Source: Devriesea agamarum
GTDB taxonomy: Bacteria; Actinomycetota; Actinomycetes; Actinomycetales; Dermabacteraceae
NCBI RefSeq assembly: GCF_900070355.1
Contig: NZ_LN849456.1
Span: forward strand, 2,862,238-2,926,237
Length of the DNA: 64,000 bases
Direction: 5' to 3'
Notes under the pieces: model-generated
Databases searched by the model: none
What the model saw: only the letters and a program-made list of their open reading frames with translations
Told to the model about the DNA's origin: nothing
In this document: positions 18,769-20,599 of the stretch, in pieces
Numbering within the stretch: position 1 is the stretch's first letter
How the letters are laid out: every line of letters begins with the position of its first letter
Made by a program: the position numbers and the translations under genes

Positions 18769-19164
18769 ATGCCACTGTCCGAATATGAGCAGCGGATGCT
18801 CGCCGAAATGGAACGTCAGCTGTTGGCCGAAGATCCAGATCTTGCCCGCTCGCTGGGTGAAGGTCCTCGAATGCGACGAGGTCGCGGACGGATGGGACTT
18901 GGGGTCCTGTTAATTCTCGCCGGGCTCGCACTTTTAATCCTGGCGGTATCTATCCCCATGGTGTGGCTCGGCGTAGGCGGGTTCTTAGTGATGCTCGCCG
19001 GAGCAATCCTCATGATCACCCCGGGCAAACAGAAATCGAAGCTCGTGACCATCGACGAAGAAGGTCTGCGGGCGCGGGCAGCGCACCCGGCAAAAGGTCG
19101 CAACGGGTTCATGCGGAAATTCGAGGAACGCTGGGACCAGCGCGGCGACGATCGCCGCCGCTGA
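18769..19164 (+). CDS. DUF3040 membrane protein
   Basis: A 131-residue protein opening with MPLSEYEQRMLAEMERQL, the DUF3040 signature. Two transmembrane segments follow (about 44-62 and 66-84), then a basic hydrophilic tail. GAGGAGGT precedes the start. Members are commonly encoded just upstream of mraZ in actinobacteria, as here. The function is unknown; a link to envelope or division is inferred only from position. Confidence 0.85.
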   Translation: MPLSEYEQRMLAEMERQLLAEDPDLARSLGEGPRMRRGRGRMGLGVLLILAGLALLILAVSIPMVWLGVGGFLVMLAGAILMITPGKQKSKLVTIDEEGLRARAAHPAKGRNGFMRKFEERWDQRGDDRRR

Positions 19165-19413: not shown

Positions 19414-19486
19414 TTCCACAGCCCTCCACCTCCTCGTGCCCATCCCCTCCACCTCCACACACCTATTCCCCTCCACTTTCCTCCAC
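19414..19486 (-). repeat. Distal inverted MraZ-box-like cluster
   Basis: Read on the minus strand, GTGGAG or GTGGAA occurs at 19414, 19424, 19447, 19453, 19471 and 19481. Two of the pairs are exactly 10 bp apart. The surrounding plus strand is C/T/A-rich. Confidence 0.45.
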
Positions 19487-19787
19487 CCCTTTGAGCAGTC
19501 CACTCGAAGCCGACTGGACTGTCGAAAGCAGTGTGAGCGTTCGCACTGAGTTGCTTGTGCCATCAATAATGGCAGCCGCTTCCCGCCGCCACCACCAATA
19601 ATCGACTGTGACCTGCTGTTATGGCGTCCGGGGTGAATAGGTTAGACGTGGCTGCTGGCGTGTTCTGATCTTCTGTAGGTCTGCTCCGTGCCCCCAGAAA
19701 GTGCGTTGATGCCCGGCTCAATCTGGGACCTCAGCTGTTCCTCCGCTCGCTTGTCGCGGCCAGGTTGAGCTTGCGCGGCAGGAATCA

Positions 19788-19814
19788 CTCCACTTTTGCT
19801 CCACCTCACTCCAC
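19788..19814 (-). repeat. Middle inverted MraZ-box-like cluster
   Basis: Three GTGGAG hexamers on the minus strand begin at plus-strand positions 19788, 19799 and 19809, spaced 11 and 10 bp. Confidence 0.5.
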
Positions 19815-19874
19815 GCGTATGACCTGGCTTTTTCGTCAGTCGCCATGAAATTACATGGCAATAGCAGTGGTCTG

Positions 19875-19900
19875 GTGGGGGAGAGTGGGGTAAAGTGGAG
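19875..19900 (+). promoter_or_regulatory. MraZ operator (three 10-bp-phased boxes)
   Basis: GTGGGG at 19875, GTGGGG at 19885 and GTGGAG at 19895 form three direct repeats with an exact 10-bp period, 50 bases upstream of the mraZ start. MraZ is known to bind such TGGG-type repeats upstream of its own operon, so autoregulation of the dcw cluster is expected. Confidence 0.85.
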
Positions 19901-19950
19901 CGCACGGGAAGAGAAGTGGTTCAGTCGGCAACCGCGGGAGGTGAGGACGC

Positions 19951-20382
19951 ATGTTCCTCGGAACCTTCACACCGCGCCTGGACGACAAAGGCCGTCTGAT
20001 CTTTCCGGCCAAGTTCCGCGACCAACTGGCAGCGGGCCTGGTGATGACCCGAGGGCAAGAGCACTGCATCTCCGTGTACCCGATGCGCGAGTTCGAACAA
20101 GTGCATGAAGAACTTCGCAAGGCACCGGTGACCAGTCGCGACGCTAGGGACTACCTTCGCGTGCTGCTATCTGGCGCCGAAGATGTAGTGCCCGATAAAC
20201 AGGGACGCATCACCATCCCCGCGCACTTGCGCTCGTGGGCCGGACTAGACCGGGAGACCACGGTCATTGGGGCGGGCAACCGCCTCGAGATCTGGTCGAC
20301 CCCCGCCTGGGAGACCTACTTGGCAGCGAAGGAAGAAAGTTTTGCGGAGACGGCTACCGAAGTCGTTCCCGGTTTGTTCTAA
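19951..20382 (+). CDS. mraZ: Transcriptional regulator MraZ
   Basis: A 143-residue protein with two AbrB-like swapped-hairpin repeats. The first is [21 protein letters not shown] and the second [20 protein letters not shown], each with the conserved DxKGR/DxQGR core. MraZ forms a ring that binds phased repeats upstream of the dcw operon. Those repeats are at 19875-19900. GGGAGGTGAGG precedes the ATG. It is the first gene of the dcw cluster, 217 bases before rsmH. Confidence 0.97.
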
Positions 20383-20599
20383 ACAGCACCAAGGGATGGT
20401 TATCCCCGCACAGCGAGGACTCATCCCGGCAATACGGCGCACCGCGAGATCTCTCGCCGCTTTGGCCCCGACGCATCTTCCCCGGTGGCGGGACTAAAGC
20501 GGGAGGGGATCTGGCGGGGCGTCGCCTCGCAAGAGGGCGGGCCCCTGCCCGTCTCGCACACGATGGGCGTATGCCCGTGACCGGCACGAGGGAGGGGCC

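What the first reader, a model, noticed from the sequence alone, without database searches (positions are those of the whole stretch)
19414..19900. Several phased MraZ-box arrays, two of them inverted, upstream of mraZ
The canonical operator (GTGGGG/GTGGGG/GTGGAG, exact 10-bp period at 19875-19900) is joined by minus-strand GTGGAG arrays at 19788-19814 and 19414-19486, also with 10-11-bp spacing. Opposed arrays about 90 and 400 bp away could let an MraZ ring bridge sites and loop the 786-base leader. A single array near the promoter is the usual picture.
Basis: partly seen in the sequence, partly recalled or inferred. Interest (0 to 1): 0.55.

Follow-up and report, generated by a model that had tools for sequence, protein, structure and literature searches.

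The report
Inverted MraZ half-operator upstream of mraZ
Next to the usual switch that controls the bacterial cell-division gene cluster, many actinobacteria carry mirror-image copies of the same switch sequence at a fixed distance upstream, so the master regulator MraZ probably grips its own promoter at two places rather than one.

Summary
The arrays are real, far above chance, and conserved. The + array (19875-19900) is the ordinary MraZ operator and overlaps a predicted -10 (TAAAGT, 19891-19896). So the other arrays lie upstream of the promoter, not in a 786-base leader. The middle inverted array (19788-19814; steps 10 and 11) belongs to a composite, CYCCAC-N4-CYCCAC-N5-TGACCTG, at a fixed distance upstream of the + array. 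A near-match to its two boxes is in register in 35 of 38 distinct family upstreams and 33 of 111 genera. Exact copies in 198 genomes of the order number 28, all just upstream of mraZ on its strand. The distal cluster (19414-19486) is only partly phased (2 of 5 steps are 10 bp), but distal inverted pairs occur in 44 of 111 genera against 2 with + pairs. Bases flanking inverted boxes resemble those flanking + boxes. Outside the class such pairs are rare (2 of 40 genomes) and absent upstream of E. coli mraZ. Best reading: a bipartite MraZ autoregulatory operator. MraZ binding to the inverted boxes is inferred; bridging by a MraZ ring is plausible but untested. A second motif, TGACCTGC, has no known binder.

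The parts
19875..19900 (+). Canonical MraZ operator: GTGGGG-N4-GTGGGG-N4-GTGGAG, period 10; box 3 overlaps the predicted -10
   Evidence: the same kind of + array anchors 244 mraZ upstreams
19891..19896 (+). Predicted -10 element TAAAGT of the mraZ promoter (start predicted near 19903)
   Evidence: TA...T at this slot in 100 of 111 genera; TTGAC (4 of 5 or better) 6 bp before the array in 49 of 111. Not a sigma-70 consensus hit in this window itself
19788..19814 (-). Proximal inverted MraZ-box array: GTGGAG x3, steps 10 and 11
   Evidence: near-match in register in 35 of 38 distinct family upstreams and 33 of 111 genera
19820..19826 (+). TGACCTG motif, 5 bp from the inverted array; unknown binder
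   Evidence: TGACCTG with at most 1 mismatch in this slot in 45 of 111 genera, 18 families
19414..19486 (-). Distal inverted cluster: five GTGGAG and one GTGGAA, steps 10, 18, 6, 23, 10
   Evidence: distal inverted pairs in 44 of 111 genera
19609..19616 (+). Second TGACCTGC copy between the distal and proximal arrays
   Evidence: similar second copies seen in relatives
19951..20382 (+). mraZ (143 aa)
   Evidence: TIGR00242, 134 bits; PF02381
18769..19164 (+). Upstream gene, SCO2097-family / DUF3040, same direction as mraZ
   Evidence: NF058603, 126.3 bits; PF11239

Best explanation
The region is a bipartite autoregulatory operator for the division and cell-wall (dcw) cluster. MraZ, an oligomeric ring, binds the three direct boxes that overlap the core promoter and represses it. 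It also binds the inverted two-to-three-box array that begins about 60 bp (six helical turns) upstream, next to TGACCTG. Occupation of both raises the effective strength of autorepression, most likely by cooperative contact or bridging, and may control access of an unknown factor to TGACCTG at about -80 from the start. Shown: the sequence arrangement, its fixed spacing, its mraZ-specificity and its conservation. Inferred: that MraZ binds the inverted boxes, that binding is cooperative, and that the net effect is repression. Distal inverted pairs probably act as extra MraZ sites.
For: Proximal inverted 10-bp pairs in 30 of 111 genera against 1 of 111 for + pairs and 1 of 111 for a reversed control; Markov expectation 0.10. 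Distal: 44 of 111 against 2 and 1; expectation 0.24. Successive inverted boxes sit exactly 10 bp apart 87 times; next is 12 bp, 18 times. Inner-box distance to the + array has sd 1.05 bp over the 21 genera (of 28 with a proximal pair in that call) in the main register, while distance to the start codon has sd 16.4. Bases between are little conserved. The exact composite occurs 28 times in 198 genomes, all upstream of mraZ on its strand, 0 in the backwards control (coordinates compared by eye). Flank log-odds of proximal inverted boxes correlate 0.74 and 0.71 with + boxes 1 and 2; distal 0.65 and 0.53. PDB entry titles include cryo-EM of MraZ with its promoter and with a 4-box promoter.
Against: No binding data. 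78 of 111 genera lack the near-match element in the main register, so it is not essential to mraZ control. Strict orientation of distal pairs is not explained by flexible looping. Flank correlation may partly reflect a G-rich strand. Helical-phase evidence outside the main register is weak: 7 families, R 0.51-0.58. Correlation with + box 3 is low, 0.35 and 0.39.
Confidence: 0.7

Rival explanations
1. The upstream inverted boxes are an activating MraZ site, or a site where MraZ competes with or helps an activator at TGACCTG. The + array represses at high MraZ (dual control, lambda-CI-like).
For: By the predicted start, inverted boxes sit near -105 and -95 and TGACCTG near -83 to -77, positions where upstream activators can act (inference from established knowledge). 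TGACCTG and the inverted element co-occur: 29 both, 9 element only, 16 TGACCTG only, 57 neither, Fisher p 4e-8, not corrected for kinship.
Against: No expression data. TGACCTG also occurs without the boxes in 16 genera.
Confidence: 0.3
2. The inverted arrays are the operator of a divergent promoter (moxR side), kept as a relic elsewhere.
For: A moxR-like gene lies divergently upstream in 62 of 111 genera.
Against: Inverted pairs are as frequent with a co-directional DUF3040 gene (17 of 32) as with moxR (31 of 62). Inverted boxes lack the TA of a -10 that follows + box 2. The register is fixed to the mraZ promoter.
Confidence: 0.08
3. The C-rich tract acts in RNA: a Rho-loading site, or a leader element pairing with the ribosome site.
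For: The distal tract is C-rich and G-poor on the + strand. A weak terminator-like hairpin lies at 19529-19548.
Against: Upstream of the predicted start. Present at equal rate where the upstream gene diverges and no + transcript is expected. No Rfam family there: mraW RNA lies downstream. Strict 10-bp period across genera.
Confidence: 0.06
4. Chance or composition: phased GTGGAG in a skewed tract.
For: The region is locally skewed in strand composition.
Against: Expectations 0.10 and 0.24 genera against 30 and 44 seen; all 28 exact composites upstream of mraZ.
Confidence: 0.02

Closest known systems
MraZ operator (E. coli, Burkholderia, Mollicutes)
   Same: GTG-core direct repeats with 10-bp period close to the mraZ promoter; E. 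coli K-12 seen here; Burkholderia: four 7-nt repeats with 3-nt spacers, downstream of the -10 (PMC7761207, passages); Mollicutes AAAGTG[T/G] direct repeats (PMC8475190, passages)
   Different: Here additional arrays in inverted orientation lie upstream of the promoter at a fixed distance; none found upstream of mraZ in E. coli
Bipartite repressor-loop operators such as lac and gal (recalled)
   Same: Two operators for one oligomeric repressor flanking a promoter region, with conserved spacing
   Different: Arrays rather than palindromes; opposite orientation; bridging not shown here
FtsR operator upstream of ftsZ in Actinobacteria
   Same: A conserved actinobacterial upstream site for a division regulator
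   Different: Motif AACCCTAAAGTAAAGGTTGAGGGTA (PMC6683498, passages) does not match TGACCTGC or the boxes
MtrA control of mraZ in Dietzia
   Same: MtrA was tested for binding to the mraZ promoter fragment by gel shift and direct control is reported (PMC9602371, passages)
   Different: No motif given in the passages seen; relation to TGACCTGC unknown

Membership tests
MraZ operator | GTGG-core hexamers in direct repeat with 10-bp period | tested here: met
   Window + array and proximal inverted array (one proximal step is 11); 87 inverted pairs at exactly 10 bp across genera. The distal window cluster meets it for only 2 of 5 steps
MraZ operator | Located upstream of mraZ | tested here: met
   All 28 exact composites in 198 genomes
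MraZ operator | Overlaps the core promoter | tested here: not met
   Met for the + array by predicted -10; not met for the inverted arrays, the nearest of which lies 77-103 bp upstream of that -10. So they are filed as upstream accessory arrays, not as the core operator
MraZ operator | Bound by MraZ | not testable with these tools
   Supported only indirectly by matching flank preferences
Mirrored promoter-operator of a divergent gene | -10 element next to the boxes, as on the + strand | tested here: not met
   T and A after + box 2 in 94 and 96 of 101; after distal inverted boxes T 13 and A 49 of 206
Bipartite repressor loop | One oligomer contacts both sites at once | not testable with these tools
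   Fixed spacing is compatible; phase test off the main register inconclusive

The most novel reading that the evidence does not exclude
In Actinomycetes one MraZ ring clamps the dcw promoter by holding direct boxes at the core promoter and opposed boxes six helical turns upstream, making a tight loop that gates an unknown TGACCTGC-binding activator. Distal pairs let the DNA wrap or recruit further rings. It would be a conserved topological switch for cell division.
Probability: 0.3. Interest if true: 0.72.

Novelty: new variant of a known kind. Interest (0 to 1): 0.55.

Why it matters
The regulator MraZ and its promoter are nearly universal, yet how a ring uses its many DNA-binding faces is poorly understood (my recollection of the field). 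A conserved, opposed second array at fixed spacing gives a direct test of ring bridging, and a new conserved motif, TGACCTGC, points to an unidentified regulator of the division cluster in a class that includes mycobacteria and corynebacteria (recalled).

Tried and rejected
Divergent-promoter relic: rejected on equal frequency with either upstream gene and lack of a -10. RNA element, Rho site or Rfam family: no match in the arrays, only mraW RNA downstream; arrays are upstream of the predicted start. FtsR site for TGACCTGC: motif differs. Genome-wide search for TGACCTGSRNNDWYR in the own genome: 54 hits against 6 in the backwards control; of the 30 loci returned (of 54), 28 lay in open frames of 120 codons or more and 2 were possibly intergenic. 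One of these 2 lies near what looks like a sigma-factor gene (my reading); the other was not identified. No regulon claim is made. G-quadruplex: a G4 is reported in the S. aureus mraZ promoter (PMC11796246, abstract and passages); the conserved inverted box GTGGAG has only GG runs, so I did not pursue it. Helical phasing beyond the main register: 7 families, R 0.51-0.58, not convincing. The early strict pair search missed Microbacteriaceae-like arrays (CTCCAT-N4-CTCCAC; compare); corrected with a looser score. One search also scanned some minus-strand loci in the wrong orientation; fixed from then on. The AlphaFold model of MraZ is of modest confidence, mean pLDDT 68.8, used only to find PDB titles.

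Paper searches: in their listings I found no report of inverted MraZ arrays or of MraZ looping. The library lacks most subscription papers.

Full report
What is there. The mraZ gene (19951-20382, +; TIGR00242 134 bits) follows a co-directional SCO2097-family / DUF3040 gene (18769-19164). The gap of 786 bases holds three groups of GTGG boxes at the coordinates given in the observation check.

Chance. In the window GTGGRG-N4-GTGGRG occurs 4 times against 0.09 expected. In the whole 2.96-Mb genome the N4/5 pattern occurs 8 times, 5 of them in this gap, with 5 for the backwards-read control.

Where the promoter is. In an ungapped alignment anchored on the + array, the bases between box 2 and box 3 and the start of box 3 read TAAAGT in the family and TAnnGT widely. 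In one representative per genus, TA...T is in that slot in 100 of 111 and TTGAC (at least 4 of 5) lies 6 bp before the array in 49 of 111. The anchor choice gave a small bonus to TA, so the first number is slightly inflated. In this window the -35 is poor and no sigma-70 consensus was found. By this prediction the start is near 19903, the leader is about 45-50 nt, and all inverted arrays are upstream of the promoter.

How the set was made. From searches for MraZ in 29 relatives, 198 genomes of the order (190 with MraZ) and 148 of the class (131 with MraZ) I took 46 loci and 120 fetched stretches; not every genome with a match was taken. With 80 named loci this gave 246 upstreams besides the window. 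Two shorter than 150 bases were dropped, leaving 244 anchored. Families are numbered, not named; that family f1 is Dermabacteraceae follows from matching coordinates.

The inverted arrays are conserved. Proximal inverted pairs: 30 of 111 genera, against 1 for + pairs, 1 for the reversed control, and 0.10 expected from a first-order Markov model. Distal (-400 to -110 from the + array): 44 of 111 against 2, 1 and 0.24. Successive inverted boxes are exactly 10 bp apart 87 times; the next commonest step is 12 bp, 18 times. In the 21 genera of the main register (of 28 with a proximal pair in that count) the inner box lies within sd 1.05 bp of the + array, while the + array to start-codon distance has sd 16.4. 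A looser score (11 of 12) finds the element in register in 33 of 111 genera, 14 families, against 5 of 111 for a reversed control, and in 35 of 38 distinct Dermabacteraceae upstreams. In Microbacteriaceae-like genera the pair is CTCCAT-N4-CTCCAC, displaced by about one helical turn.

A composite, specific to mraZ. TGACCTG with at most one mismatch occupies one slot in 45 of 111 genera, 18 families, with about 1 expected; the consensus extends to TGACCTGCGNNTAYG, while bases from 15 to 29 after its start carry little information. The exact composite CYCCAC-N4-CYCCAC-N4-6-TGACCTG occurs 28 times in 198 genomes; comparing coordinates by eye, all 28 lie just upstream of mraZ on its strand, and the backwards control gives 0.

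Same factor? The bases flanking inverted boxes, which the search pattern does not fix, resemble those of the + boxes: log-odds against 498 control boxes correlate 0.74 and 0.71 (proximal) and 0.65 and 0.53 (distal) with + boxes 1 and 2, but only 0.35 and 0.39 with + box 3. The second base after the box is mostly a purine and the next prefers A on both strands. Some of this may be strand skew. The + array's TA (the -10) does not follow the inverted boxes, so they are not mirrored promoters.

Upstream gene. A divergent moxR-like gene is found in 62 of 111 genera, a co-directional DUF3040 gene in 32, neither in 17. Any inverted pair is present in 31 of 62, 17 of 32 and 5 of 17. The arrays are thus not tied to a divergent promoter, nor to an RNA read through from upstream.

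Depth. Of 40 genomes fetched from outside the class (out of those found), 2 have an inverted pair; 2 have a TGACCTG within 400 bp of the array and neither lies in the usual slot; + arrays of varying quality were found. E. coli K-12 has the + array only and no CYCCAC in the 634 bases checked. So the inverted arrays look like an elaboration of the class Actinomycetes.

Mechanism. PDB titles include MraZ with its promoter and with a 4-box promoter from Mycoplasma genitalium; I saw titles only. That MraZ forms an octameric toroid is stated in PMC7761207 (passage). I commit to a bipartite autoregulatory operator: MraZ on the + array blocks the core promoter, and MraZ on the inverted array strengthens or gates this. 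Bridging by one ring is the boldest form; the fixed spacing fits it, while the kept orientation of distal pairs at variable distance is unexplained. The phase test outside the main register is inconclusive. Dual control with activation from upstream is the main rival.

Literature. Passages only were read of PMC6683498, PMC8475190, PMC9602371, PMC7761207, PMC11796246 and PMC5138195. The E. coli MraZ paper is not held. No listing named inverted MraZ arrays.

Noticed in passing
20431-20532 (+): mraW cis-regulatory RNA (RF01746), 56.3 bits, between mraZ and rsmH/mraW.
   Followed up: no
19820-19826 and 19609-19616 (+): TGACCTG(C) motif, conserved upstream of mraZ in 45 of 111 genera (at most 1 mismatch), with a second copy near the distal array; binder unknown.
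   Followed up: partly
genomes of family f37 / genus g92: All 10 sampled genomes, 7-10 Mb, have no MraZ match; size suggests Streptomyces (guess).
   Followed up: no
L194 (G204), upstream of mraZ: A distal run of eight inverted boxes with steps 10, 12, 10, 13, 10, 13, 10, as if pairs repeat every 22-23 bp.
   Followed up: no
19529-19548 (+): Weak terminator-like hairpin between the distal and proximal arrays.
   Followed up: no
L036, distal region upstream of mraZ: The composite appears inverted: GCAGGTCA-N5-GTGGGG-N4-GTGGAG on the + strand.
   Followed up: no
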